From Thermovirga lienii DSM 17291 (GTDB lineage Bacteria; Synergistota; Synergistia; Synergistales; Thermovirgaceae): a stretch of DNA of 64,000 nt. Location: assembly GCA_000233775.1 (NCBI GenBank), contig CP003096.1, forward strand, positions 1,824,501 to 1,888,500, written 5' to 3'. Of this stretch, positions 22,799 through 36,588 are shown piece after piece. Within the stretch, counting starts at the first letter, position 1, and the number at the start of each line of letters is the position of its first letter. Below the pieces are notes generated by a model that saw only the letters and a program-made list of their open reading frames with translations, was not told the DNA's origin and did not search any database. A program made the position numbers and the translations under genes.

Positions 22799-23671
22799 CT
22801 AAAAAGGCATCTCCCAGGATCTCCCCAAGGGTACGACCAGGACATTTGCCGGCGCCCTATGGCTGACCCTGAAGGCACAACTACCCACCCTGAACATTTC
22901 CGACCTTCCCACCCCCTGGGCTCCAACTATGATCAGCGTTGGTTTCTTCTCCTCAGCCTCGGAGATGAACTCGTCTACCACCCTTCCCGTCCTCATTGAA
23001 ACTTCTACATCTTTAACCCCTTTATTCCTTAAGGCCTCTGCCATCTCCTCAAGGCGGCTGAGCTCCAACTCTATGATCTCTTGTATCCTTCCTTTTGCCA
23101 CCACCTTCTCCAGAAGCTCTATATTGCTTCTTTCGTGAACATGCAAGATGGTGACCCGTTTCAACGCTCCTTCCACCTCTTGAACCAAACCTTCCAACAG
23201 TCTAAAGGCATTATATGAATGATCGGAGAAATCTATGCCTATCATCACGTGCTCCAGAGGTTCCTCGAAGCTTCCATCTTCTTTGGATTTGCACAGGAAC
23301 ATGGGCACAGGGCATTCCTCCAGTACCCTGTAAGCCGTCTCACCTAAAAACTTTGTCTGAAACTCCCTTTCCCCTCTTGACATGATCAGAAGAGAAGCCT
23401 TAAATTCATTCACCTTTTCCACTATTGTGTAGAAAGGAATTCCTTTTTCCACACAAACACCCACGTTAAAACCTCTATCCTGCAGCTCTTTCACCTGGCT
23501 TTTTAGCTTTTCCTCATTTTCTCTGTCCAGAGAGGATACACCCTTTCGTTCATCCAAAACATGGAGCAAAAGGACCTCTCCCACCTTTTTAGGAGGGAAT
23601 TTGCCCAGAGCCTTTACCTCGCAGAAGCTTCTCTCCTTTAGGTCCGTGGCCAATAGCACCTTCTTCAGCAT
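22799..23671 (-). CDS. Tandem-domain universal stress protein
   Basis: This protein of about 290 aa consists of two UspA domains (about 1-140 and 150-285). The ATP-binding signature is visible in the second (GAQGVGRSEMFRVGSCAFRVSHRAP). In the first the equivalent SRGEREFQTKFLGETAYRVLEECPVP is partly degenerate. I use the ATG at 23671 (MLKKVLLATDL), preceded by GGAAGGG, rather than a frame 18 codons longer. It is separated from the next Usp gene by a terminator, so it is probably a separate unit with the ferredoxin gene. Confidence 0.85.
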   Translation of the reverse strand: MLKKVLLATDLKERSFCEVKALGKFPPKKVGEVLLLHVLDERKGVSSLDRENEEKLKSQVKELQDRGFNVGVCVEKGIPFYTIVEKVNEFKASLLIMSRGEREFQTKFLGETAYRVLEECPVPMFLCKSKEDGSFEEPLEHVMIGIDFSDHSYNAFRLLEGLVQEVEGALKRVTILHVHERSNIELLEKVVAKGRIQEIIELELSRLEEMAEALRNKGVKDVEVSMRTGRVVDEFISEAEEKKPTLIIVGAQGVGRSEMFRVGSCAFRVSHRAPANVLVVPLGRSWEMPF

Positions 23672-23742
23672 CGCCGATCCCTTCCTTCGCAGAAAGATTA
23701 GCTGTTTCTGTGAAGATTTTACCACGTTTTAGCGTTACATAA

Positions 23743-23780
23743 AACACGGGACCGCTATTTAAGGGGCCCCGTGTTGGTTA
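23743..23780 (-). terminator. terminator of the arsenic operon
   Basis: On the reverse strand AACACGGG and CCCGTGTT pair around a 17-base loop and are followed by a TTATG stretch. It lies 24 bases downstream of the last gene of the arsenic operon. Confidence 0.55.
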
Positions 23781-23803
23781 ACTTTCCGAAAGAGCTTTTT
23801 TGC

Positions 23804-24667
23804 TCAGCGAATTACGAAAACAGAACAAGGTGCTTTGTGTATGATGGTCTCTGTAACGCTGCCAAGCATCATCTCCAGCAGCCTGCTTTTACCCTTGGCT
23901 CCCATGACCAATAGGGAGGGTTTCTTTTCCTCGGCGTATTTAAGTATGCCCGCTACAGGGTGGTCCTCTACTATGTGAGCTTCCACAAAGCTAAAACCCT
24001 TTTCCGCCAGGTTTTGGCGTATTTGTTCTATTTGTCTTTTTTCTTCCTCACTTATTTCCTGGATCTTTTCTGTGCTCATGTACTCCATGGCTCTCGTGTC
24101 GTGGACGTGCAGAATGTCCAATGTAGCACCAGGAATGTCTCCCATCTTCTCCAGGTACGAAAGCGCCTTTCCTGCTCCCTCGGAAAGGTCTGTAACGTAA
24201 AGGATTCTCTCAAATACGCTGTTACATGTAAGGGAGTAGGAGGCTTCCTCCTTTCCTTCACAAGGATAATTCCTCAAAAGCAAGACCGGCTGCCTGGCGT
24301 GATGGAGCACGTTTTCGGCTACACTGCCCAAAAACAGCCTCTTAAACAAATTGGAGCCCCTTGAACCCAACATAACAAGAGAGTAATCTTCTTCCTCCAA
24401 CCTGCGAAGGATTTCCTCTGTGGGATTTCCCTCCTCCAAATAGGTTTCCACCTTTGCGACACCGGCCTCCACAAGGCGCTTTTTCCACTTAGTTAGTGTC
24501 TCTTTGGCGAACTCCACAATCTTAGGATCGCCGTACGTATCGTGGAGGTCCACTACGTGCATCAGGTCAACCTGCTCTACTCCTGCTTTTACCATGTCCG
24601 AAATGCAGGAAAGGTAATTTTCCATTTTATGAGTCAAAACCACTGGAAAAAGAACTTTTCTGAACAT
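23804..24667 (-). CDS. Tandem-domain universal stress protein of the arsenic operon
   Basis: This 287-aa protein has two UspA domains with nucleotide-binding signatures (GSRGSNLFKRLFLGSVAENV in the first; GAKGKSRLLEMMLGSVTETI in the second) and starts MFRKVLFPVV. It begins 3 bases after the acr3 stop, so it is part of the arsenic operon. Usp proteins bind ATP and aid stress survival. A specific link to arsenite is inferred only from position. Confidence 0.88.
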   Translation of the reverse strand: MFRKVLFPVVLTHKMENYLSCISDMVKAGVEQVDLMHVVDLHDTYGDPKIVEFAKETLTKWKKRLVEAGVAKVETYLEEGNPTEEILRRLEEEDYSLVMLGSRGSNLFKRLFLGSVAENVLHHARQPVLLLRNYPCEGKEEASYSLTCNSVFERILYVTDLSEGAGKALSYLEKMGDIPGATLDILHVHDTRAMEYMSTEKIQEISEEEKRQIEQIRQNLAEKGFSFVEAHIVEDHPVAGILKYAEEKKPSLLVMGAKGKSRLLEMMLGSVTETIIHKAPCSVFVIR

Positions 24668-24670
24668 TAT

Positions 24671-25744
24671 CTACACCTCCTTGAACCAGTTTCTGGTCTT
24701 GAGGCAGAAGCGCACCAGCATGAGCATCACTGGAACCTCTATCAAAACTCCTACGACCGTTGCCAGGGCTGCTCCAGAAGAAAGACCGAACAACATGGTC
24801 GCTGTGGCAATGGCAACCTCGAAATGATTGGATGCTCCTATCATCGCAGCTGGCGCTGCATCCTCGTAACGGAGCTTCAAGAGCTTAGCCAGGAAGTACC
24901 CCAGGGCAAAGATCAACGTAGTCTGAACGAAAAGCGGTATGGCTATCCAAAGAACGGTCAAGGGATTTTGCACTATGATATCTCCCTTGAAGGAAAAGAG
25001 AAGAACCAACGTCACCAGCAGGGCTGTTATGCTCACGGGCGTCAGGTAGTGGAGGAAGTTGGACTCGAACCAGCCGTATCCTTTGTGTTTTATGATCCAC
25101 TTCCTGGAAAAGTACCCTGCTACCAAAGGCAAGGCCACGTAAATAGCCACGGAGAGCAAGATGGTTTGCCAAGGAATGGGCATGGCATTTACACCCAAAA
25201 GGAACCCTCCAAGGGGGCCATACAAAAAGAGCATCGTCAAAGAATTTATGGCCACCATTACAAGGGTAAGGCCGTTATTACCTTCCGCCAGATATCCCCA
25301 AACCAACACCATCGCCGTGCATGGAGCTATTCCGAGCAATATCGCTCCAGACACATAGCTTCTCCAAAGTTCCACTTCCTGTCCTGTCTTTATTATCTCA
25401 GTTCCAGGAAGGAAACCTTTGAACAGCACCCCTAGGAACAAATAAGCTATGAGATACATGGAAAAAGGCTTCACTGCCCAGTTGATGAAGAGGGTCAAAA
25501 GCACTGGTTTGGGAGTTTTACCAGCCCTAAGCACCTCAGCGAAATCTATCTTTACCATTATGGGATACATCATGAAGAACAAACAGATGGCTATGGGAAT
25601 GGAGACCTCATAGACCGACATGGAATCCAGCGCCCTAGCAACCCCTGGAGCAACCCTGCCAAGGATTATCCCCGCCACGATACACAAAGCAACCCATAGA
25701 GTAAGGTATCTCTCGAACAACGAAAGCTTTTTCGCACCTGCCAT
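24671..25744 (-). CDS. acr3: Arsenite efflux transporter Acr3
   Basis: This 357-aa membrane protein has ten predicted helices. It carries the conserved [18 protein letters not shown] segment, whose cysteine is essential for arsenite transport in this family, and [13 protein letters not shown] near the start. It exports As(III), or Sb(III) in some members, using the membrane potential. It lies in an operon after arsR, arsC and the small tandem-TGA gene. Length and motifs are normal. Confidence 0.93.
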
Positions 25745-25796
25745 GAATCATACCTCCATCACAAGTTCTTGGTTGTAGAAATTATCGAAAGGATCT

Positions 25797-26102
25797 TTAC
25801 TCGAACCACAGTCTCAACCTTCCGACGCCCTCCACGAAGAACAGGTAGGAACCATCGGGCATCTTTCCTGTCTCCTCGAAGAAGTCCATAGCCTCCTTGC
25901 TTATCCAGCAGGTTACTTCCTCGCCCTGCACTTCGTAGGGGGTAAAAGATTCGGTATTTTCCGGTTTTCCCAAAAGGCCCGCCGGGCCTCTATAGACCAT
26001 TCATCAGCCCGCTATGTTGGTTCTTACTACTATGCAGAAATGTCCGCCGTGTTCTTTTACCTGCTGAAGCCAAAATCTGGATATCATCCTGATAGTTCTC
26101 AC
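25797..26102 (-). CDS. Small tandem-selenocysteine (UU) protein in the arsenic operon
   Basis: From a GTG at 26102, with GAGGAGG 8 bases upstream, one frame runs 101 residues to TAA if two adjacent TGA codons (26006-26001, codons 33-34) are read as selenocysteine. The TGAs follow a hydrophobic strand FCIVVRTNIAG and are followed by LLGKPENTESFTPYEVQGEE and a C-terminal LFFVEGVGRLRLWFE. This layout, and its paralogue at 30551-30850 with U-C at the same place, resembles the small family I recall as CC/Se motif (seleno)protein. Standard gene callers see only the last 67 residues. It sits between arsC and acr3. A redox or metal(loid)-binding role is inferred. Confidence 0.8.
25973..25991 (-). other. 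candidate SECIS hairpin after the tandem TGA
   Basis: On the reverse strand AGAGGCCC-GGC-GGGCCTTT makes an 8-bp stem (one G-U pair) whose loop starts 18 bases after the second TGA. Distance, stem length and a G at the first loop position all fit bacterial SECIS rules. Confidence 0.75.
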
Positions 26103-26131
26103 CTGCCCCACCTCCTCTTTTAAGTTGCATC

Positions 26132-26563
26132 TCAATCCTCTTGCATAACGCTTTCGGGCAGGGTCTTCACGAAATCCCTTATTTCGTCCCTTACCCTCCT
26201 GAAGAAAGCCAAAACTTCCTCTTCGCTGCCCTCTGCCCTAGCAGGATCATCAAAGCCCCTGTGAACCACCCTGGTATCTCCTGGGAACACCGGACAGGTG
26301 TCTTTGGCATCGCCGCAGAGAGTTATGACCACGTCGAACTTCACGTCCAAAAGCTCCGTGACGTTTTTACTTCGCTGGTTGGAGATGTCCACTCCTGCCT
26401 CTTTCATGACTTTTATGGCAAGGGGGTTCACCGTGCTGGGAGCCGTACCAGCAGAGTAAGCCTCTATAACATCTCCCTTTAACGCTTTTGCCCACCCTTC
26501 AGCCATTTGACTTCTACAAGAGTTTCCGGTGCATAAAAAAAGAACCTTTGTTTTTTTGCTCAC
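26132..26563 (-). CDS. arsC: Arsenate reductase, thioredoxin-coupled ArsC type
   Basis: This 143-aa enzyme of the low-molecular-weight phosphatase fold has an anion loop and catalytic Cys in FLCTGNSCRSQMAEGW. The resolving cysteines lie in TLCGDAKDTCPVFPG (about 80-95). The pattern is that of thioredoxin-dependent ArsC, which reduces arsenate to arsenite for export by Acr3. It starts 7 bases after the arsR stop. A thioredoxin-like domain fused to the adjacent ArsR may be related to its reductant supply or to sensing; that link is inference. Confidence 0.92.
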   Translation of the reverse strand: MSKKTKVLFLCTGNSCRSQMAEGWAKALKGDVIEAYSAGTAPSTVNPLAIKVMKEAGVDISNQRSKNVTELLDVKFDVVITLCGDAKDTCPVFPGDTRVVHRGFDDPARAEGSEEEVLAFFRRVRDEIRDFVKTLPESVMQED

Positions 26564-26570
26564 TCCAGCT

Positions 26571-27176
26571 CTACCTCCTGACGATGTTTTTTTGATGCTC
26601 TTGGAGAAAATCCTTCAATGTTTTTACGATTTCATCCTCCGATGGAACCTTCCCTTCATAAAGAAGCTGTCCTTCTACTGCCAAACTAGGTGTTATAGCC
26701 GTACCGAAGGCCAATATCTCCTCAAGCTCCGACATTTTGATGATTTCAAAATCCACTCCCAAGGAAGAGGCCGCCTTTCTGGCCCTTTCTTCCATGGCAA
26801 GACAGTCTCTACAGTTGGCACCTAGGACTTGGATCTTCAGGACCTGACTCTTGGCCTCTTCTTGCGCTCCACAGTAAGCAGCATATTGTTGGGATATCTT
26901 CTTTTTGATCTCCTTATCAAGGCACGCCATGAAAGGGCCAAGACACTCCAAATCCAAGGAGTAGTAAACTTTAAGCCCCTCTTTATGATCTTTCACGATA
27001 CCGCTTTGCCTTAAAACACCAAGGTGCTTGCTCACGTTGGTCCTTGTGCAGCCAAACCAGCCTGCTATCTCCTGGACGCACCGAGGCTGGGCTGCAAGCT
27101 TCTCAACGATCGCAAGCCTTACTGGGTGGGACAGCGCCTTGAAAATTTCAGCTTTCTTCTCCAAAAGGGAACTCAC
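26571..27176 (-). CDS. arsR: ArsR-family repressor fused to a thioredoxin-like domain
   Basis: This protein of about 201 aa has an ArsR/SmtB winged helix at about 1-95, with recognition helix CTRTNVSKHLGVLRQSG. A small thioredoxin-fold domain follows (about 120-195), with a CxxC in LGANCRDCLAMEERA and the cis-proline segment AITPSLAVEGQ. I choose GTG at 27176, 9 bases after AAGGAG, over the longer TTG frame, whose start abuts the ribosome site. It is first in the arsenic operon and probably represses it at the palindrome just upstream. The redox domain could couple repression to thiol state. Confidence 0.88.
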   Translation of the reverse strand: MSSLLEKKAEIFKALSHPVRLAIVEKLAAQPRCVQEIAGWFGCTRTNVSKHLGVLRQSGIVKDHKEGLKVYYSLDLECLGPFMACLDKEIKKKISQQYAAYCGAQEEAKSQVLKIQVLGANCRDCLAMEERARKAASSLGVDFEIIKMSELEEILAFGTAITPSLAVEGQLLYEGKVPSEDEIVKTLKDFLQEHQKNIVRR

Positions 27177-27191
27177 AGATCTCAACTCCTT

Positions 27192-27230
27192 CTATGTGAA
27201 ATAGTACTCACATAGTTACATATATGTCAA
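27192..27230 (-). promoter_or_regulatory. ars operon promoter overlapped by an ArsR operator
   Basis: On the reverse strand TTGACA (27230-27225) and TACTAT (27206-27201) are 18 bases apart. A perfect palindrome, CTATGTGA-N8-TCACATAG (27192-27215), is centred on the -10 box. ArsR proteins bind such dyads and leave when As(III) binds. The start codon of arsR lies 16 bases further on. Confidence 0.8.
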
Positions 27231-27249
27231 GAAAAAAAGGCGGACTCAT

Positions 27250-27281
27250 AAAAAAAGCCCTCTTCACTATTGCGAGAGGGC
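27250..27281 (-). terminator. terminator of the thioesterase-AOR-usp operon
   Basis: On the reverse strand GCCCTCT and AGAGGGC pair around an 11-base loop and are followed by seven T residues. It ends the reverse-strand transcription unit whose last gene stops at 27342. Confidence 0.85.
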
Positions 27282-27341
27282 ATTTCGAATGTTAAAACAC
27301 CGAAATTAACGACCTGACCATAATTTGGTGCAGTGTCAAAA

Positions 27342-27791
27342 TCAAATTCTGGGCCTGTAGACCAAAACACTGCATGGGGCATGGGCAACTATCTTGGCCG
27401 CCACACTTCCTATAAAGAACCTCTCCAGGTTCTTCATACCCCTGTGCCCCACTATGATGAGCTGGTAATCTGTATCTTCTTCGGCTAGCTTGACTATCTC
27501 GTTGTAGGGAACTCCCACTATCATTGAGAACTCATGGGGGAAATCCTTATTTCCTGTCTCCGCTGCCGCTTCCTCCACCATCTCCCTGAATTCTGCCTCC
27601 AAGTCTCTTCTGAACCTCTCGTCGTACTCGATGGGAACCGGCATGCCAGGAAAGGCGGTCAATGGATGCTCCTCGTACACATGAACGAAATGAAGCATCT
27701 CAATGTTTTCTCTCTTTGCATACTCGAAGGCATACCTCATAAGTTCCCTGCTCAAAGCGCTGCCGTCGATCGCCACAAGGGCCTTCCTCAT
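27342..27791 (-). CDS. Universal stress protein, single domain
   Basis: This 149-aa UspA protein starts MRKALVAIDGSALS and has the ATP-binding signature GHRGMKNLERFFIGSVAAKIVAHAPCSVL. I use the ATG at 27791, which has GAGGGGAG upstream, instead of a frame 12 codons longer that overlaps the ribosome site. It is the last gene of the reverse-strand operon that includes the deacetylase and AOR. Confidence 0.88.
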   Translation of the reverse strand: MRKALVAIDGSALSRELMRYAFEYAKRENIEMLHFVHVYEEHPLTAFPGMPVPIEYDERFRRDLEAEFREMVEEAAAETGNKDFPHEFSMIVGVPYNEIVKLAEEDTDYQLIIVGHRGMKNLERFFIGSVAAKIVAHAPCSVLVYRPRI

Positions 27792-27828
27792 AAGATTCAC
27801 TCCCCTCTTTGTTTTTCTATGCTCCACT

Positions 27829-28641
27829 CTAATTAATTACTTCATCTAATCTAACAAAAGTATAACCCTTTTCAAGCAAAATGGGTATTGCTAGCTTCAA
27901 TCCCTCGGCCGTTTCCCCCTCTGGGTGGTTCATGTGGCATATTATTACGTCCCCTGGGCGAGCCTTAGAAACTGCTTCTGTAACCTTTTTTGACGAAAAG
28001 GTTGCACCTCCATCGCCCAATATGCTGTAACCTACTGGCTTCATGCCGAGGTCATAAACTATTTGTACAGCCACATCATCGTAATAATTGGTACCGGAAC
28101 GATAAAACCCGGGCCTTGTACCAGTCAATTTTTCTATTGCCCTGGCTCCTTTCTCCACTTCCTCCCACACTTCCCTTACGCTTGATGTACCTTTTATGCC
28201 GTACGCTTCCTTGCCGTTCACCGAGCAGGGCTTATGACGAAAACCGTGGTTTGCTATCAGAAATAGGGGGTTTTTCTCCAGGTTCTTGGCTTCATCGGGG
28301 TTGTCTCTGATCCATCGCGCATTCAAAAAAAGAGTGGCCTTTATGTTGTTCTCCACAAGAAAATCTACGAGCTCCCTGTCGTAGCCAGAACCGCCCTTTC
28401 CGCCGCAGGCATCCAGCGTCAGCGCCACCTGAAGGCCTGAAGGATCAAAACGGGTGACCACACCAGGAACGTCTTGCCCCCAAAACTTAGGGGTAAGGTT
28501 ACCATAGCGCTTATTTATCTCCTCCAGCGGTAAGGGGGCATTGCGACCTGCCTCAGTTTTCAACAACTCAACTCCAAAGACAAAAGCCCCCACCACTGAA
28601 AGCAATACCAGAAACCTCCAAAAGCGCAAAAGACCGGTCAC
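27829..28641 (-). CDS. Exported polysaccharide deacetylase family protein
   Basis: This 270-aa NodB-fold hydrolase has an N-terminal signal or anchor (FWRFLVLLSVVGAFVFG). Motif 1 is altered to TLDACGG instead of TFDDG. Motif 2 has the metal histidines in ANHGFRH, motif 3 is RPGFYRSGTNYYDD, and the late H is in ICHMNHPEG. It removes acetyl groups from sugars or acts on peptidoglycan. The GTG start overlaps the AOR stop as GTGA, so the two are coupled, although their functions look unrelated. Confidence 0.83.
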   Translation of the reverse strand: MTGLLRFWRFLVLLSVVGAFVFGVELLKTEAGRNAPLPLEEINKRYGNLTPKFWGQDVPGVVTRFDPSGLQVALTLDACGGKGGSGYDRELVDFLVENNIKATLFLNARWIRDNPDEAKNLEKNPLFLIANHGFRHKPCSVNGKEAYGIKGTSSVREVWEEVEKGARAIEKLTGTRPGFYRSGTNYYDDVAVQIVYDLGMKPVGYSILGDGGATFSSKKVTEAVSKARPGDVIICHMNHPEGETAEGLKLAIPILLEKGYTFVRLDEVIN

Positions 28642-30521
28642 CTCACCAAATAGTCCAACCCAAGTTCCTTGAGCTTCTCCCTAGTCGGACGGCCATTTTC
28701 GTCCCATCCTCGGGCCTGATAATACTCCATGAGCATCTTATCGTAATCGGAAATGACGCATTCTGCCTTTTGTGCGTACTTCCCAAAAGCAGGCTGGCTT
28801 AAAATTTTCTTAGGCAAAAGGTCGTCCTCTTTGCTTACCCCTTCTCGCACGTTGAAGGCCCTTTGGGCGTTATATGCCCTTTCTCCAACCTTGAGAAGAT
28901 CTTCGCCTGTAAAATCTTCGCCCGACAACGCTGTCATTAAATCTGCCAAGTCATCTACAGTTACTCCAGCATAGACATAGAATTTGCAAAAGCCCAAGAT
29001 ATCTGGCATCATTCCAAAATCATGAAGGAGCTTTACGGCTTTTCCCTTGCCCTCTTCTTCATACCTATCCACTTCATTGGGATCAGGCAGGCCATAGGAG
29101 ATAAGGCCAAAGTCCATCTTTCCTGAGTCCCAAGCCATTCCCTCAATAGGGTGGATGTGGTTCATTCCTGTGTTGGCAACACCGTAGGACAGCCCCAACG
29201 CTTTGCCTGAACGGGGGTCATGGGCCGGTCCTTCAAGTCCTTTGACGTGGACCGCAAGCTCTTGTGCCCCTTTACCAAGCTCGGACGCTGCTCTTTTTAC
29301 CCCGTCTGCCAAAAGATCTCCAAGGCCTTCCCTCGAAGCTATCTTTCTAAGGAGCTTCAGTGTCTCTTCCATGTCCCCCCATTCAAGAGGGCTTCCCTCG
29401 TTATCGCTGGGCTTTAGGATTCCCTTTTCAAAGCAGTCCATGGCGAAGGCAAGCACCGAACCAGCCGATATGGTATCAAGGCCAAACTCGTTGCAGAGCC
29501 AAGAGGCATGAACTGCTGCATCCACATCTTCGTTGAGCAGGTAAGCTGTAAAGGTGGTCATGGTCTCATATTCGCATCCCTCATGACAAGGGGTCATCCA
29601 TGGCCCCTTGTCAACCTTTGCCTTCCTGCCGCACCTCAAGATACATCCCTTGTAACAAGGCCTTGCCGACACGAAATTGTTCTCCTGAAAATGCTTAAAG
29701 AGCGCTGCGCCCTTGCCCCACGAATTGGCTTCCCAGTTTTTGGTAGGGAAATCCCCCGCTGCATCTGCCCTGGCAAGCTCTCCTGTTGTTCCCTCTTGGG
29801 CCCATATGGCATTTCCCGGGTCGCTTATCAGCCTTCGGCTTATATCTCTACACAGAGCCATGAACTTTTGGGCTTCACGGATGGGGAACTTTTTCTTTCC
29901 CCTCACTGCCACGGCAAGAAGGTTTTTGGATCCCATAACAGTTCCTGCACCACTTCTGCCAGCAGCCCTTGAAGCATCACCAAACATGACCGACGCAAAC
30001 TTAACTAGGTTCTCTCCGGCGGGACCTATACAGCCTACTTCGAAATCGCCGCCCAGCTCATCTTTTATGGCCTTTGTCTTCTTACTGGTGCTCAGTCCCT
30101 TCAGAGCAGGCCATGGGCGAACCTCCCAGCTTCCTTCATCTATTATCAAAACAGAAGGTTCTTCTGCTCTCCCTGTTATAACCACTACATCTATCCCGGC
30201 CTTCCTTAAAGCAGGCCCAAAATCGCTTCCGCTCCTGGATTCTCCCCAAACGCCAGTTAGAGGTGACTTGAAACACAAATCCACACTGCCGCACCCTGGT
30301 GCACCGGTACCTGTCAGTGGTCCAGTGGCAATTACTAGCGGAGCCTCACTGCCTAAAGGGTCATATTTGGCCTCTGTTTCCTTTAAGATTATGTCCGCAG
30401 CAAGCCCAGCTCCTCCCATGAAAAGGTTCAAGGCTCTCTCTTCTGCTTTCTCAACAAAGCATGTGCCAGTAGAAAGGTCTACCCTCAACATCTTTCCAAA
30501 TACAGATTTCAATCCCTGCAT
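28638..30521 (-). CDS. Aldehyde:ferredoxin oxidoreductase (tungsten AOR family)
   Basis: This 627-aa enzyme oxidises aldehydes to acids and reduces ferredoxin at a bis-pterin tungsten (or molybdenum) site. The N-terminal domain ends with the pterin-binding RSGAGTVMGSKNLLAVAVRG. The 4Fe-4S ligands are in CYKGCILRC plus a late C in LGFCKFYVY. I use the ATG at 30521 (MQGLKSVFGKMLRVDLS), preceded by GAGGAGG, rather than an 11-codon longer GTG form. It lies 29 bases downstream of the Sec-Cys small protein, and the two are clearly co-transcribed. Confidence 0.9.
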   Translation of the reverse strand: MQGLKSVFGKMLRVDLSTGTCFVEKAEERALNLFMGGAGLAADIILKETEAKYDPLGSEAPLVIATGPLTGTGAPGCGSVDLCFKSPLTGVWGESRSGSDFGPALRKAGIDVVVITGRAEEPSVLIIDEGSWEVRPWPALKGLSTSKKTKAIKDELGGDFEVGCIGPAGENLVKFASVMFGDASRAAGRSGAGTVMGSKNLLAVAVRGKKKFPIREAQKFMALCRDISRRLISDPGNAIWAQEGTTGELARADAAGDFPTKNWEANSWGKGAALFKHFQENNFVSARPCYKGCILRCGRKAKVDKGPWMTPCHEGCEYETMTTFTAYLLNEDVDAAVHASWLCNEFGLDTISAGSVLAFAMDCFEKGILKPSDNEGSPLEWGDMEETLKLLRKIASREGLGDLLADGVKRAASELGKGAQELAVHVKGLEGPAHDPRSGKALGLSYGVANTGMNHIHPIEGMAWDSGKMDFGLISYGLPDPNEVDRYEEEGKGKAVKLLHDFGMMPDILGFCKFYVYAGVTVDDLADLMTALSGEDFTGEDLLKVGERAYNAQRAFNVREGVSKEDDLLPKKILSQPAFGKYAQKAECVISDYDKMLMEYYQARGWDENGRPTREKLKELGLDYLVR

Positions 30522-30550
30522 ATTTATCCTCCTCTCGGCCGCATCAACTT

Positions 30551-30850
30551 TCACGGAATAATGGCGGTAGATATGAACAAAATATCGCTCCGACGAAGGC
30601 TGCCTCGTTTGAAGCGAACCTCGCCACCAAGGAAAGTCATATCCTTAGGCACCCACAAGGAGACGCCACCCTGGCTTATGAGCCTGTAATTGTCTTTTTC
30701 CCTTGGAGAACCGCCCTGCACGAGGGCTTCTTGTCTGCTGCATCAGCCACCGGTTCTAACTACCACAACATATGCTTCGTTGCCACTTTTCCTGAAGAAC
30801 TCTAAATCTTCAGCCTTCAAAACCAGGCGCTCATCGTTTTGGTTTTTCAC
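30551..30850 (-). CDS. Small selenocysteine-cysteine (UC) protein upstream of AOR
   Basis: From a GTG at 30850 the frame is open for 99 residues to TGA at 30551, apart from one internal TGA (30745-30743, codon 36) directly followed by a Cys codon. The protein reads as a helix (LVLKAEDLEFFRKSG), a strand YVVVVRTGG, then U36-C37, then QGGSPREKDNYRLISQGG, VSLWVPKDM and a basic tail. It is a paralogue of the tandem-TGA protein at 25797-26102: both have V-V-R-T before the Sec position and similar spacing after it. An in-frame ATG 14 codons upstream is an alternative start, with a poorer ribosome site. No protein-coding call covers this otherwise empty 380-base gap. Function unknown; a redox or metal role is inferred. 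Confidence 0.82.
30707..30731 (-). other. candidate SECIS hairpin in the UC small protein gene
   Basis: On the reverse strand AGAA-GCCCT-CGTGC-AGGGC-GG-TTCT makes nine perfect pairs with a two-base GG bulge. The CGTGC loop starts 21 bases after the TGA. This is a textbook geometry for a bacterial SECIS and strongly supports the Sec reading. Confidence 0.82.
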
Positions 30851-30906: not shown

Positions 30907-32661
30907 TTACTGCATCACTGCCAACACAAGCACAGCTACCCAGCTAGCGCGCCCTTCCTGCTTTAGTACCCTAGAGGCCTCGAAAATGGATGCCCCAGAC
31001 CTTACAACATCATCCAAAAGCACAATCCTTTTTCCTTGGACCTTTACGCTCTTTGAAAAACCGTAGGCATTAGACACCGCGTTGAATCTCTCCTTTGGAT
31101 TGGGGATCTTCTTTAGCTCAGGCACAGGCCTTTTTTTAATGAATGCCTCTTTGGCTAAAGGAACTCTGGTCCTAATAGTCAACTCCTCTGCCAAAATCTC
31201 CAATGGCTCCTTGCGGTTTCTACCGCCAAAAGGTGGCACAAAAACCAAAATATGGGGACTTATCTCTAAAAGTTTGGGAGCTAACAGGGCTGCTATTTCT
31301 TTCACTGCCTTGTATTCTGCTTTATGCTTAAACCTCTTGAAGAGTTTTTCGAGGTCCGAAAGGTCTGCTTGAAGGATATTTCTGCACGGCCTTATAACTC
31401 CCAGAGCATATCCCTCATCCCAAGGCGTCTTACCAGGGAAGAATTTTTTAAGATCCTCCATGGGGTGGCTTTCTCTTGGCGTTTTGGTTGCAGCAAGACG
31501 AAGGGCATCTTTTCCCAAAAAATTAACGACCTGATCCACAGCATCCATAAGAAGCCGCTTTTTCTTGCGTTTTTCTTCCTCGAAAAGGGTTACCTGGACC
31601 ATATCCCTGGGGATAAGGTCTTTCAAGGTGAGCCCTACCTTCCTGTACAAGTAGCCCCGCTTGTATATCTTCTCCAGTGCCTCCTTTGCCGCTTCGACTA
31701 GGTCGTGAGTGCAGTCAGATGGGACCTTCAGTTTTATGTTCGCGCTGTTATTGTACTGAGGAAGGTCCGTCCTGTAAGGGTTTGTATGAAGGGATACCTG
31801 CAGGCTTTTGCACAAAAGTTTTTCTTTTCTGAGGATGAGGGCAGCTTCCTCTACGTGCTCCAACAGGGCCACCCATATTTCTTCCAATTCTCTCACAGGG
31901 TGCCTGAAACTTGGGGCAATCTGTATGGATTTTCTGGGCTGACGCTCTGCCGTGAAGGGGTAGCACACCACTCCTCTCAATTCTTTCCATGTGGACCATA
32001 CCAAGGCAGGAAAATTTTCTAAAATCCATTTTTCGTCGGAAACAAAAAGGTCATAACCTGAAGTCAACCCTATTGAGCGGAGTTTACCGGCAGTCTTTCG
32101 TCCTATACCCCAAACCTCCTCTATGGGTATCCTTTTAAGTACCTCTTTGGCCACTTCTTCGGAAGATATCCAGAACACTCCTTCGTGAAGCTCTTCCCTT
32201 TTGGCTATGTACCCTGCTGCCTTGGCTAAGGTCTTTGTGTTTCCTATGCCGATGGAAACAGGAATGCCTGTTTCTTCTTTGATGAAATTTCGCACCTGTC
32301 TGGAAAAGCCTACCGGGTCCTCTTTATGAATGCCCGTTAGGTGAAGGTAGGCTTCGTCTATTGAAGAAACTTCAACTTCAGGGACCAAAAGGTGAAGGCA
32401 CTTCATGACTTTCCGCGACATTATGCGGTAGTACTCGTGGTCGCCTTTTAAAACCACAACACGATTTTTCCGGCAAAGGGCCTTTACGGTAAAAAAAGGA
32501 ACGGCCATACCTATACCTAGTGCCTTTGCCTCGTTGGACCTTGCTACTACGCAGCCGTCGTTATGGGAAAGCACAATGACAGGCCGCCCTTCAAGAGACG
32601 GGTCCCTGACTCTCTCGCAGGAAACAAAAAAATTATTGCAGTCGCATAGGGCTAAGAGCAC
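30907..32661 (-). CDS. Y-family DNA polymerase (UmuC-like) fused to a phosphoribosyltransferase domain
   Basis: This 584-aa protein starts as a UmuC-type lesion-bypass polymerase. Its first metal-site segment is CDCNNFFVSCERV, followed by DGCVVARSNEAKALGI and the SSIDEAYL catalytic acids (about 100). Helix-hairpin-helix IEEVWGIGRKTAGKL and a little-finger domain reach to about 350, then a UmuC-type C-terminal region with GKDALRLAA. Beyond residue about 440 is a ComF-like type I phosphoribosyltransferase ending with the PRPP loop VLLDDVVRSGAS (about 548-559). UmuC normally ends near 420-430 aa. The frame is continuous and there is no internal ribosome site, so this is a true fusion. It precedes the Sec-Cys small protein and follows the thioesterase gene. 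Confidence 0.85.
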   Translation of the reverse strand: MLLALCDCNNFFVSCERVRDPSLEGRPVIVLSHNDGCVVARSNEAKALGIGMAVPFFTVKALCRKNRVVVLKGDHEYYRIMSRKVMKCLHLLVPEVEVSSIDEAYLHLTGIHKEDPVGFSRQVRNFIKEETGIPVSIGIGNTKTLAKAAGYIAKREELHEGVFWISSEEVAKEVLKRIPIEEVWGIGRKTAGKLRSIGLTSGYDLFVSDEKWILENFPALVWSTWKELRGVVCYPFTAERQPRKSIQIAPSFRHPVRELEEIWVALLEHVEEAALILRKEKLLCKSLQVSLHTNPYRTDLPQYNNSANIKLKVPSDCTHDLVEAAKEALEKIYKRGYLYRKVGLTLKDLIPRDMVQVTLFEEEKRKKKRLLMDAVDQVVNFLGKDALRLAATKTPRESHPMEDLKKFFPGKTPWDEGYALGVIRPCRNILQADLSDLEKLFKRFKHKAEYKAVKEIAALLAPKLLEISPHILVFVPPFGGRNRKEPLEILAEELTIRTRVPLAKEAFIKKRPVPELKKIPNPKERFNAVSNAYGFSKSVKVQGKRIVLLDDVVRSGASIFEASRVLKQEGRASWVAVLVLAVMQ

Positions 32662-32664
32662 AAA

Positions 32665-33420
32665 TTATCGTTCCTCTCGTGATATTTTCTCCCACTCGGT
32701 GCTTATTACAGCCATGGATTGGCCATCTTTCTCCCCGTATATATGGTGGCGACATAAAATAGAGCAAGAATTTTTGTCTATCCCCACCTCCGAAATCACC
32801 GAATCTCCATAGAAAGCAGGCCTTTTGAATGCTATTTCAACTCCTTTGGGTTTGTATTCTTTTAATATCTCAACAGGAATGGTATCCAGTGCCCACCTTA
32901 GATAATGGACATTGTTGACATGGAAGTTCATGTCCAAATCGGTGACTGCGACCTGGATAGTTTTCTTTACGTCAACTTTCTCCGGCAAAAGAAGCTCTTG
33001 GAAAGAAACCTCCAAATTTTCATCCTTATTTTTATCGTATGCCTCAGGCATGACCCTGTCCAGCCTCAAGGGCCTTCCCCTGTTCATGTCCACTACCACC
33101 CAAGATGTCTGAACGGACAAAAGTTTTTTGCCGTTACAATCGAGCATCTCGAAGTTTCTCAAAGAATACAAGTTTTTCTCTGGGCGGTACCAGGTCTTTA
33201 TGGTAACCAAGTCGCCTCTTTGGGGCATGGTCTGGATTGTCATCTTGAAGCGATGAAGCACCCATGTTTTGCTTTGCTTTAAAAGATCCGCAACTGAGAC
33301 TCCAACTCTCTCAGCATGGTCATCGGCAATATCCTGACACAAGTTCATGGCACCTGTAAGCTTTAACCTTCCCAAGGCCCCCGCCTGGGAATAGCTGATT
33401 CTGAAGTTATGTTCGTACAA
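32665..33420 (-). CDS. Acyl-ACP thioesterase (FatA/FatB family)
   Basis: This 251-aa double hot-dog enzyme releases fatty acids from acyl carrier protein. The first hot-dog has SQAGALGRLKLTGAMNLCQDIADDH, read here as two parts of the motif. The second has DLDMNFHVNNVHYLRW, containing the D/N/H catalytic residues of the family. It ends 3 bases before the polymerase fusion gene starts and heads the reverse-strand operon. Length matches bacterial members. Confidence 0.88.
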   Translation of the reverse strand: MYEHNFRISYSQAGALGRLKLTGAMNLCQDIADDHAERVGVSVADLLKQSKTWVLHRFKMTIQTMPQRGDLVTIKTWYRPEKNLYSLRNFEMLDCNGKKLLSVQTSWVVVDMNRGRPLRLDRVMPEAYDKNKDENLEVSFQELLLPEKVDVKKTIQVAVTDLDMNFHVNNVHYLRWALDTIPVEILKEYKPKGVEIAFKRPAFYGDSVISEVGIDKNSCSILCRHHIYGEKDGQSMAVISTEWEKISREER

Positions 33421-33457: not shown

Positions 33458-34375
33458 AGTTACGTCCATATAATTGTGTAAAATTAAGAGCCAAGGCAAG
33501 GTCTCTGGTTTAAAATGGTAAGCGGAAAAACAAACCCAAACCGGAGGTGACCTTGCAATGGCTCAGTACAATATTACCATCGACTCAGAATTACTGCATC
33601 AGTTATTTTTGTCGGACAGTAAGGATTCTGGAGTATCTAAGTTATTGGAGTCGGTATTGAATCAAGTTCTTCAGGCCCAGGCAACAGAACAACTGAGAGC
33701 AGAGGCTTACGAGCGGACAGAGGAAAGACGAGGGTATCGCAACGGAACATACCCGCACAGGCTTACGACGAGAGTAGGGAGCCTTGTTTTGAGGGTGCCC
33801 AGGCTTCGTAATGGCAAGTTTTCTACGGAGCTTTTCAGCAGATATCAGAGGAGCGAACAGGCCTTTATTTTGGCTTTGATGGAGATGGTAGTAAATGGGG
33901 TATCAACCCGTAAGGTATCTGAGATAACCGAGGAGTTATGTGGAGTAAGGATATCCAAGTCAGAGGTGGGTAGAGGAATACGAAGAAAAAGCTCCTAAGG
34001 CGATGAGGATTTTGGAAGAGGGATTTGACGATGCTGTGGCGATATTGTCTTTGCCGGAGAAGTATCGTAGGCGTTTGAGGGCGACCAACAGTGTGGAGAG
34101 ATTGAATGAGGAGATAAGGCGTAGGGAGAGGGTTATACGGATATTTCCAAGCAGGGAATCGGCAGTAAGGTTGCTTGGCGCAGTTCTTCTTGAGATAGAC
34201 AACAAGTGGGCTGGTGGAAGGAAGTACCTTGATATGGATGAGTACTATGAATATCTTTCACAACAGCAATCTAGATCAAGCCCTAAAATCTATTGCCTTT
34301 AACAAAAAATAAGAAAAATGCATAAGACCATTACCAGAGACCAAAACAAATTTACACAAAATATAGGGCTTGACC
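33458..34375 (+). mobile_element. IS256-family element, internally deleted copy A
   Basis: An element of about 918 bp bounded by imperfect terminal inverted repeats: the left end AGTTACGTCCATATAATTGT and, read inward, the right end GGTCAAGCCCTATATTTTGT. It contains only the start and end of an IS256-type transposase. It is almost identical to copy B in opposite orientation. No target-site duplication is visible at either side (CTCTTTTCA versus TGGAGTAAA). Ends were set by comparison with the intact element at 35193-36588. Confidence 0.8.
33558..34302 (+). pseudogene. IS256-family transposase with catalytic core deleted
   Basis: The N-terminal frame (146 aa, to 33998) runs normally through VVNGVSTRKVSEITEELCG and SKSEV. 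It then jumps, out of frame, to the C-terminal part VEEYEEKAPKAMRILEEG and RATNSVERLNEEIRRRERV (to 34302). About 160 residues holding the two catalytic aspartates of the DDE triad are missing; only the glutamate region remains. The deletion also shifts the frame, so no active transposase can be made. Copy B has the same junction. Confidence 0.9.
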
Positions 34376-35192: not shown

Positions 35193-36588
35193 AGTAGTGT
35201 CCATTATGATGGTGTAAAATTGATGGCTTGAAGCAGGAGAGCCACCCCTCCCTCTGGTAGATAAGAAGTAGCTTAATCTTAATCATCAGGAGGGAGAAAA
35301 GATGGCTCACTACCAGGTTACCGTAGACTGTGATCTCTTGCAAGGATTATTTATTCGGGATGATGGATTGGCTCGGTTGGTGGAGAACATCGTGAATCAG
35401 ATACTCGATGCTCAGGCTACCGAACAACTCAGGGCCAAGCCATACGAACGTACCGAAGAGCGGCAGGGGTACCGCAACGGGTATCGGGATAAGCTGCTCA
35501 AGTCTCGCGTAGGAGAACTTACGCTTATGGTTCCCCGTCTCCGGAGCGGGCACTTCTCCACGGAGCTTTTCGAGCGGTACCAGCGGAGCGAGCAGGCGCT
35601 CTTGCTGGCCATGGTCGAGATGGTCGTGAACGGCGTATCCACCAGGAAGGTAAGGGCGGTTGTTGATGAACTATGCGGCACGGAGTTCTCCAAATCCACC
35701 GTATCCAGCCTGTGCAAAAGACTGGACGACATCGTAAAGGAGTGGAACGAGCGAGATTTGAGCAGCCAGGAATACCCATTTCTCCTGGTAGATGCCATTG
35801 TCATCCGGGTGCGTAAAGGCGGCCGGGTACGGCTTTCAAGCGTACTTCTCGCTACAGGGATCAACCGGGAGGGATACCGGGAGATTTTAGGGCTTATGCT
35901 CGGGGATAGCGAATCAGAGGCTGCTTGGTCGGAGTTCTTCGGCCGGCTCAAGGAGCGCGGTCTCAAGGGAGTGGACTTGGTTGTTTCGGATGATCACAAG
36001 GGCTTGATCAATGCGATAGAAACCCACTTCCAAGGAGCGACATGGCAGCGGTGCCAGACCCACTTTATCCGGAACATCCTGGACGCCTGTCCTAAGAGCC
36101 TCCAGGGCGACCTGCACGGGCGACTGCGGTTGATCTTCGACGCGCCGGATATGGAGACGGCCAGGCGGTTGCTGAACGAAACGATAGAGGCCTTTGGCGC
36201 CCGGGCGCCAAAGGCGGTAGAGCGACTTGAAGCTGGTTTCGAGGACGCAATGGCGGTGATGGCACTACCAGGGCGCTACCGGAAGCGGCTGCGCACCACC
36301 AATGGAGTCGAGCGGCTCAACCAGGAGATCCGCCGGCGGGAGCGGGTGATCCGAATCTTCCCTAACGAGGAGTCGGCTGTGAGACTGATCGGAGCAGTGC
36401 TTGTAGAGATCGACGAGGTGTGGACCACAGGAAAGCGCTACTTTGATATGGCAGAGTATTGGGAGTGGAAGGCTAACACAGAAAAACAGCAGAAGGAGGT
36501 GAATAATGCCGATACCCAGGTAAATGTAGCTTAAAACGGGGTGATCTTATCTGCCAGAGGGAATTTACACACAAATTTGGACTTGACC
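35193..36588 (+). mobile_element. Intact IS256-family insertion sequence (1396 bp)
   Basis: The element is delimited on both sides by the 9-bp duplication CTTATACTA. Its ends are AGTAGTGTCCATTATGATGG and, read inward from the right, GGTCAAGTCCAAATTTGTGT. They are imperfect inverted repeats sharing GTCC and GTGTAAA blocks with the deleted copies A and B. It carries one full-length transposase. Its coding region looks richer in G and C than its neighbours, consistent with recent arrival. Confidence 0.92.
35302..36534 (+). CDS. IS256-family transposase, full length
   Basis: This 410-aa DDE transposase has the N-terminal DNA-binding part with GYRNGYRDKLLKSRVGELTL, then catalytic D in LLVDAIVIRVR (about 160). 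The second D is in LVVSDDHKGL (about 230), followed by the C-x2-H type segment WQRCQTHFIRNIL. Catalytic E is in TTNGVERLNQEIRRRERV (about 340). GGAGGG precedes the ATG. All family motifs are intact, so it is probably active, and by shared ends it could mobilise the deleted copies in trans. Confidence 0.93.
   Translation: MAHYQVTVDCDLLQGLFIRDDGLARLVENIVNQILDAQATEQLRAKPYERTEERQGYRNGYRDKLLKSRVGELTLMVPRLRSGHFSTELFERYQRSEQALLLAMVEMVVNGVSTRKVRAVVDELCGTEFSKSTVSSLCKRLDDIVKEWNERDLSSQEYPFLLVDAIVIRVRKGGRVRLSSVLLATGINREGYREILGLMLGDSESEAAWSEFFGRLKERGLKGVDLVVSDDHKGLINAIETHFQGATWQRCQTHFIRNILDACPKSLQGDLHGRLRLIFDAPDMETARRLLNETIEAFGARAPKAVERLEAGFEDAMAVMALPGRYRKRLRTTNGVERLNQEIRRRERVIRIFPNEESAVRLIGAVLVEIDEVWTTGKRYFDMAEYWEWKANTEKQQKEVNNADTQVNVA

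What the first reader, a model, noticed from the sequence alone, without database searches (positions are those of the whole stretch)
30907..32661. Lesion-bypass polymerase fused to a phosphoribosyltransferase
A UmuC-type Y-family polymerase continues without break into a ComF-like phosphoribosyltransferase with an intact PRPP loop (VLLDDVVRSGAS). I do not know of a described fusion of this kind. It hints at a link between mutagenic synthesis or DNA uptake and nucleotide or base salvage, for example local base exchange or PRPP sensing. It lies in an operon with AOR and a selenoprotein.
Basis: partly seen in the sequence, partly recalled or inferred. Interest (0 to 1): 0.78.

Follow-up and report, generated by a model that had tools for sequence, protein, structure and literature searches.

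The report
Repair polymerase fused to toxin-type phosphoribosyltransferase
In a small family of bacteria (Thermovirga and kin), an error-prone DNA repair polymerase has lost the tail that normally holds its partner UmuD and carries instead a sugar-phosphate-transferring domain of a type otherwise found in plasmid and phage-defence toxins, a combination I could not find described anywhere.

Summary
The fusion is real. ORF 30907-32661 (-) encodes one unbroken 584-aa chain: a catalytically intact UmuC-branch Y-family polymerase, then a phosphoribosyltransferase (PRT) domain with an intact PRPP loop. It recurs in an independently assembled second Thermovirga species (81% identity) and in another genus of the same family; a sister genome has lost the PRT in a clean deletion. 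It was found in 3 of 185 Synergistota genomes and nowhere else searched.

The PRT is not a competence ComF proper: the genome has a separate Zn-ribbon ComF. It groups (96/94) with the PRTs of mobile two-gene PRT + SLOG/DprA-like modules of plasmids and prophages, relatives of ShosT and RqlH/PsyrT toxins. It replaces the UmuD'-binding tail of UmuC; the clamp motif and RecA-type motif remain. Both Thermovirga genomes lack UmuD, while normal UmuCs of the family keep tail and umuD together. The PRT core diverges much faster than, or was exchanged separately from, the polymerase.

Likely reading: a UmuD-independent bypass polymerase carrying an exchangeable, PRPP-dependent PRT payload, working like RqlH (RecQ helicase + PRT). 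Architecture is shown; function is inferred. The AOR/selenoprotein operon link is not conserved.

The parts
30907..32661 (-). fused gene: UmuC-type Y-family polymerase + PRT domain, 584 aa, GTG start
31597..32661 (-). Y-family polymerase core, residues 1-355 (IMS, HHH, little finger)
   Evidence: Pfam/NCBIfam; fold search Dpo4/MsDpo4/pol kappa, E to 5e-28; pLDDT mostly over 90
32353..32358 (-). catalytic D102-E103 of SIDEAY; the other catalytic carboxylate D7 is at 32641-32643
   Evidence: invariant in Synergistota UmuC alignment A5; positions
31582..31596 (-). beta-clamp-binding motif QVTLF, residues 356-360
   Evidence: position; Q356 invariant in A5; role inferred from family knowledge
31489..31551 (-). 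RecA-NT-like motif (N half of DUF4113), residues 371-391 LMDAVDQVVNFLGKDALRLAA
   Evidence: alignment with normal UmuCs; meaning of the motif from PMC6511836
31429..31488 (-). linker where the UmuD'-binding tail would be, residues 392-411
   Evidence: DUF4113 complete in G006 second copy and G007, absent here
30910..31428 (-). PRT domain, residues 412-584, without Zn ribbon
31402..31422 (-). WDEGYAL motif (414-420) shared with mobile PRT modules (GNWDxGYALDKH)
   Evidence: alignments A2, A3, A7, A9
31219..31239 (-). PPi-loop region VPPFGGR, residues 475-481
30988..31023 (-). PRPP loop VLLDDVVRSGAS, residues 547-558
32665..33420 (-). upstream gene, acyl-ACP thioesterase, ends 3 nt before the fusion; same order in the second Thermovirga species

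Best explanation
It is a UmuC-branch translesion polymerase that no longer depends on UmuD and that carries, in place of the UmuD'-docking tail, a PRT domain of the mobile ShosT/RqlH-related kind. Mechanism proposed: the clamp motif and RecA-type motif still bring the protein to RecA-coated gaps or stalled ends; there the PRT domain, loaded with PRPP or a nucleotide, acts on (or senses) the DNA end or the local nucleotide pool, restrained by the polymerase part in cis. This is the same division of labour as in RqlH, where a RecQ helicase carries a PRPP-loop-dependent, DNA-damaging PRT domain. Shown here: architecture, recurrence, origin group of the PRT, replacement of the tail, no UmuD or SLOG partner detected in the Thermovirga genomes, intact catalytic motifs in both parts. 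Inferred: recruitment, PRPP binding, any catalysis, and effect on the cell.
For: Fused PRTs and mobile-module PRTs form one clade (96/94) apart from Zn-ribbon ComF and PsyrT PRTs; profile match 1.8e-22 over 169 columns including the W..GxAL start, against 7.6e-19 for canonical ComF. PADLOC hits to PsyrT 8e-8 and ShosT 1.6e-7. Structural neighbours are ComFC and ShosT-PRPP. The tail is replaced just after the RecA-type motif. An S24/UmuD gene lies directly beside the normal UmuC in G002, G005, G006 and G007, but no S24 gene was found in G000, G001, G003. The PRT core is 60% identical and the polymerase 88% between the two Thermovirga species, breakpoint at residue 426, synonymous codons also differ more: exchange or fast change, as in conflict genes. 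Precedent: RqlH toxicity needs its PRPP-loop D663, the PRT alone is not enough, and the helicase helps restrain it (PMC4670107).
Against: No biochemical data. No SLOG partner of the mobile-module kind in any Synergistota genome (the profile does find known positives), so it is not a toxin-antitoxin pair of that kind. G003 keeps the polymerase without PRT and without UmuD, so the PRT is dispensable for whatever the polymerase does. The mobile modules themselves are untested; their toxin role is by analogy with ShosTA and RqlHI. The full-chain model places the PRT with low confidence.
Confidence: 0.45

Rival explanations
1. Regulatory gate: the PRT has no enzymatic role but senses PRPP/NMP (as PurR or PyrR do) or binds ssDNA (as ComFC does) and switches the polymerase on or off in cis, standing in for UmuD'.
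For: The PRT takes the place of the UmuD' tail and UmuD is absent. ComFC binds ssDNA and PRPP/NMP (PMC9005727). Structural neighbours include PurR and PyrR regulators.
Against: G003 lacks both UmuD and PRT yet keeps the polymerase, so no in-cis stand-in seems needed. The PRT group is that of presumed effectors. Fast PRT divergence is unusual for a regulator.
Confidence: 0.3
2. Dispensable appendage: a mobile PRT gene fused by chance, tolerated, and now drifting or being lost.
For: Fusion limited to one family; clean loss in G003; PRT core diverges far more than the polymerase.
Against: The PRPP loop is kept in all three copies across two genera and the W..GxAL motif too; dN of about 0.30 with synonymous sites saturated still suggests constraint.
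Confidence: 0.17
3. Local base exchange or salvage enzyme coupled to mutagenic synthesis.
For: PRPP loop intact.
Against: No salvage-family match above any cut-off; the closest groups are not salvage enzymes; salvage products would be ribo-NMPs, not polymerase substrates (general knowledge).
Confidence: 0.06
4. Artefact: frameshift or misassembly joining two genes.
For: Apparent frame break in the G006 copy.
Against: That break is an NN assembly gap; two independent intact copies.
Confidence: 0.01

Closest known systems
RqlH/PsyrT (RecQ helicase + PRT) with RqlI/PsyrA (DprA-like)
   Same: a DNA-acting enzyme with a C-terminal PRT domain carrying a PRPP loop; the PADLOC PsyrT model hits the PRT
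   Different: polymerase instead of helicase; PRT of another subgroup; no DprA-like partner gene beside it. Full-length RecQ-PRT genes exist in other Synergistota (L073-L076)
ShosTA and mobile PRT + SLOG modules of plasmids/prophages (L033, L035, L093-L098, L105-L119)
   Same: WxxGxAL start and no Zn ribbon; one clade with the fused PRTs; ShosT is a close structural neighbour
   Different: module PRTs are stand-alone, about 195 aa, with a SLOG-like partner; here fused to UmuC and without partner
Pol V (UmuC with UmuD'2)
   Same: intact UmuC-branch core, clamp motif, RecA-NT-like motif
   Different: UmuD'-binding tail replaced by PRT; no UmuD found in G000/G001
ComFC/GntX (ComF family)
   Same: PRT fold; nearest solved structure 7p0h (Z 12.4)
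   Different: no Zn ribbon; far below the TIGR00201 cut-off (43.8 of 233.6 bits); the genome has its own ComF
ImuB (Y-family protein with a fused C-terminal accessory domain)
   Same: a Y-family chain whose tail carries an extra domain instead of a separate small subunit (PMC6511836)
   Different: ImuB is catalytically dead (PMC6511836); its C-domain is described as beta-structured, not a PRT

Membership tests
UmuC-branch Y-family polymerase | catalytic carboxylates D and DE (SIDEA) | tested here: met
   D7, D102, E103 invariant in A5
UmuC-branch Y-family polymerase | IMS, HHH and little-finger domains | tested here: met
   fold search
UmuC-branch Y-family polymerase | clamp motif and RecA-NT-like motif | tested here: met
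   QVTLF 356-360 and LMDAVDQ.. 371-391 by alignment
Pol V catalytic subunit UmuC | UmuD'-binding C-tail (end of DUF4113) and a UmuD partner | tested here: not met
   no DUF4113 match; no S24 hit in G000, G001
ComF family (ComFC/GntX) | N-terminal 4-Cys Zn ribbon | tested here: not met
   absent in the chain; present in L099 of the same genome
ComF family (ComFC/GntX) | curated model cut-off | tested here: inconclusive
   43.8 bits against 233.55; but the genuine Zn-ribbon ComF L099 also scores only 37.8
Mobile WxxGxAL PRT group (ShosT-related) | clade and start motif | tested here: met
   96/94 support; motif
Mobile PRT + SLOG module / ShosTA / PsyrTA toxin-antitoxin | adjacent SLOG/DprA-like partner | tested here: not met
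   none beside the gene; SLOG profile 0 of 185 genomes, known positives found; only one DprA each in G000, G001
ShosT/RqlH toxin | PRPP-loop-dependent toxicity | not testable with these tools
   loop residues present; needs expression
RqlH/PsyrT | RecQ helicase domain | tested here: not met
   PRT is fused to a polymerase

The most novel reading that the evidence does not exclude
A DNA-damage-guided effector polymerase: a translesion polymerase that uses its clamp and RecA contacts to place a PRPP-dependent, toxin-family PRT on damaged or invading DNA, with the PRT exchangeable between lineages like a conflict payload and held in check by the polymerase itself rather than by an antitoxin.
Probability: 0.25. 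Interest if true: 0.82.

Novelty: new variant of a known kind. Interest (0 to 1): 0.58.

Why it matters
What PRT domains of the ComF/ShosT/RqlH sort do to DNA is an open question. Finding the same sort of domain joined to a second kind of DNA-handling enzyme (a lesion-bypass polymerase as well as a RecQ helicase) suggests that these PRTs act at DNA, and gives a single-chain, antitoxin-free protein in which that could be tested. It also shows a Pol V lineage in which loss of UmuD and of its docking tail goes with gain of another domain.

Tried and rejected
Artefact/frameshift: rejected (two intact copies; the G006 break is NN). True ComF fusion: rejected by missing Zn ribbon, tree and separate ComF. 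Toxin-antitoxin pair: rejected for lack of partner. YolD as UmuD counterpart: none in the family. Phage tblastn hits of the C-part were ordinary ComF genes, three of the four with a Zn-ribbon ComF beside a RecD2-type helicase. Full-chain fold: PRT part poorly modelled there, so it was folded alone. Foldseek alone gave weak E-values for the PRT (best 3.4e-4). Literature searches for a UmuC/Y-family-PRT fusion found nothing, in an open-access library only. The SHOS_Xan row in the PRT tree was cut short by my choice of start codon, and the FUS_G006 row there was joined across the NN gap; neither alone carries the conclusion.

Full report
Observation. The minus-strand ORF 30907-32661 encodes 584 residues without a break. 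Pfam and NCBIfam find a complete UmuC-type Y-family polymerase (residues 3-390; IMS 2.5e-39, UmuC model 1.4e-94) and a ComF-like phosphoribosyltransferase at 437-581 (2.6e-11). Catalytic residues D7, D102 and E103 are invariant in an alignment of 14 Synergistota UmuCs. The PRPP loop VLLDDVVRSGAS lies at 547-558. The polymerase part models well (pLDDT mostly over 90) and matches Dpo4, MsDpo4 and pol kappa. The PRT folded alone gives pLDDT 83.8 and pTM 0.81; VIA-align places H. pylori ComFC first (7p0h, Z 12.4, rmsd 3.2 over 152 residues) and ShosT with PRPP next (8zvc, Z 11.2, rmsd 3.3 over 156).

Recurrence. The window lies in a Thermovirga-type genome: its nearest relative, G001/L041, is recorded as Thermovirga sp. 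GB_MAG10_013. The full fusion is in that relative at 81% identity and in Synergistaceae UBA4088 (G006/L042), where an NN gap interrupts the frame. A profile of the PRT in 185 Synergistota genomes finds the three fused copies (best E 1.9e-84, 4.3e-83 and 6.2e-33) and then nothing better than ComF-like genes at 3e-14. The scan of 84,980 species with narrow patterns added nothing else. No plasmid or phage record covers 80% of the chain.

One gain, one loss. In a tree of 22 UmuCs the fused ones plus G003 form a clade (100/99), with G003 and G006 as sisters. G003 has a 398-aa UmuC without PRT; the DNA on both sides aligns with G006 at 83-84% identity, and about 457 bases that hold the PRT in G006 are missing in G003. 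The simplest history is one fusion in the ancestor and one deletion in G003. G006 also has a second, normal UmuC (L021).

What the PRT is. It has no Zn ribbon. The same genome has a separate Zn-ribbon ComF (L099). PADLOC models of two toxins match the PRT: PsyrT (8e-8) and ShosT (1.6e-7). tblastn in plasmids found stand-alone PRTs of about 195 aa in Agrobacterium and Xanthomonas, and a second round found them on plasmids of Klebsiella, Enterobacter, Listeria, Acinetobacter and others. In the records inspected each is followed by a gene of about 175-290 aa. These partners align as one family with a GDAxGxD core, some with a weak DprA match and some with an added HTH domain; I call them SLOG/DprA-like. 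Most of the prophage-type contigs found have the same pair. These PRTs begin with GNWDxGYALDKH; the fusion has PWDEGYALGVIR. In a tree, fused and module PRTs form a clade (96/94) apart from Zn-ribbon ComFs and PsyrT PRTs; hhalign agrees (1.8e-22 against 7.6e-19). The difference between those two scores is modest, so the claim is 'same subgroup', not 'same function'.

What it replaced. The normal UmuCs of the phylum that were scanned end in DUF4113, whole or in part. According to PMC6511836 its first ~30 residues are a RecA-N-terminus-like motif, and the last ~28 residues of UmuC bind UmuD'. In the fusion the clamp motif QVTLF and the RecA-type motif LMDAVDQVVNFLGKDALRLAA are kept; the SPRYTTRW-type tail is gone and the PRT stands there. 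An S24/UmuD gene lies directly beside the normal UmuC in G002, G005, G006 (second UmuC) and G007, whereas none is found in G000, G001 or G003. YolD is absent from the family. So a UmuD-free lineage is a good inference; that the PRT takes over from UmuD' is not, because G003 has neither.

Unequal divergence. Between the two Thermovirga species residues 1-412 are 88% identical and residues 426-583 only 60%. A maximum chi-square scan puts the amino-acid breakpoint after residue 426, and synonymous codons change rate after residue 473 (0 of 300 and 0 of 1000 permutations as high). Higher synonymous divergence points to exchange of the PRT core between lineages rather than faster protein change alone, but with one pair of genomes this is not proven.

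Mechanism. The nearest functional precedent is RqlH of E. coli: RecQ helicase plus PRT, whose PRT makes it genotoxic without RqlI, needs PRPP-loop D663, does nothing alone, and is held in check by the helicase and RqlI (PMC4670107). [quoted passage not shown] ComFC binds ssDNA and PRPP/NMPs (PMC9005727). I therefore favour a polymerase-delivered, PRPP-dependent PRT payload (0.45), then a regulatory gate (0.30), then a tolerated appendage (0.17). No partner gene was found: the SLOG profile finds none in 185 genomes while it does find known ones, and G000 and G001 have one canonical DprA each. It is therefore not filed as a toxin-antitoxin pair.

Neighbourhood. Upstream, an acyl-ACP thioesterase ends 3 nt before the fusion and keeps that place in the second species. 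Downstream, a small ORF with an in-frame TGA matches the CC/Se motif (seleno)protein model under its cut-off (6e-8), followed by AOR. This is not conserved: in the second Thermovirga species ABC-transporter genes on the other strand follow. The AOR/selenoprotein link is therefore probably incidental.

Verdict. A genuine, narrowly distributed new domain architecture; a new variant of the known theme 'DNA enzyme + ComF/ShosT-type PRT'. Function is untested.

Noticed in passing
L033, L035, L093-L098 (plasmids), L105-L119 (viral-contig collection): Widespread two-gene modules: Zn-ribbon-free PRT (GNWDxGYALDKH) followed by a SLOG/DprA-like protein, some with an HTH domain; annotated as ComF plus hypothetical or antidote protein. 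Candidate toxin-antitoxin or defence systems; the two PRTs scanned match PADLOC ShosT/PsyrT models only weakly.
   Followed up: partly
L073-L076 (four Synergistota genomes, one genus): Full-length RecQ-PRT (PsyrT/RqlH-like) genes, each with a neighbouring ORF that looks DprA-like; in L073 PF02481 was confirmed at 2.4e-31.
   Followed up: partly
window 30555-30850 (-): Small ORF with in-frame TGA, 98 aa, CC/Se motif family (seleno)protein NF041239 (6e-8, under cut-off), just upstream of AOR 28638-30554.
   Followed up: partly
G000, G001, G003: No S24 peptidase found at all, so no LexA-type or UmuD-type protein was detected; SOS control in Thermovirga may differ.
   Followed up: no
window 33558-34302 and 35302-36534 (+): Two related IS256-like transposases near the fusion gene, the first split into two ORFs (read from sequence, not searched).
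   Followed up: no
window 22799-27827: Several universal-stress-protein-like genes around an arsenite-type transporter and an ArsR-type regulator (mostly read from sequence; only 27342-27827 was confirmed as Usp).
   Followed up: no
L042 and L021 (genome G006): This genome carries two UmuCs: one fused, one normal with DUF4113 and a neighbouring UmuD.
   Followed up: yes
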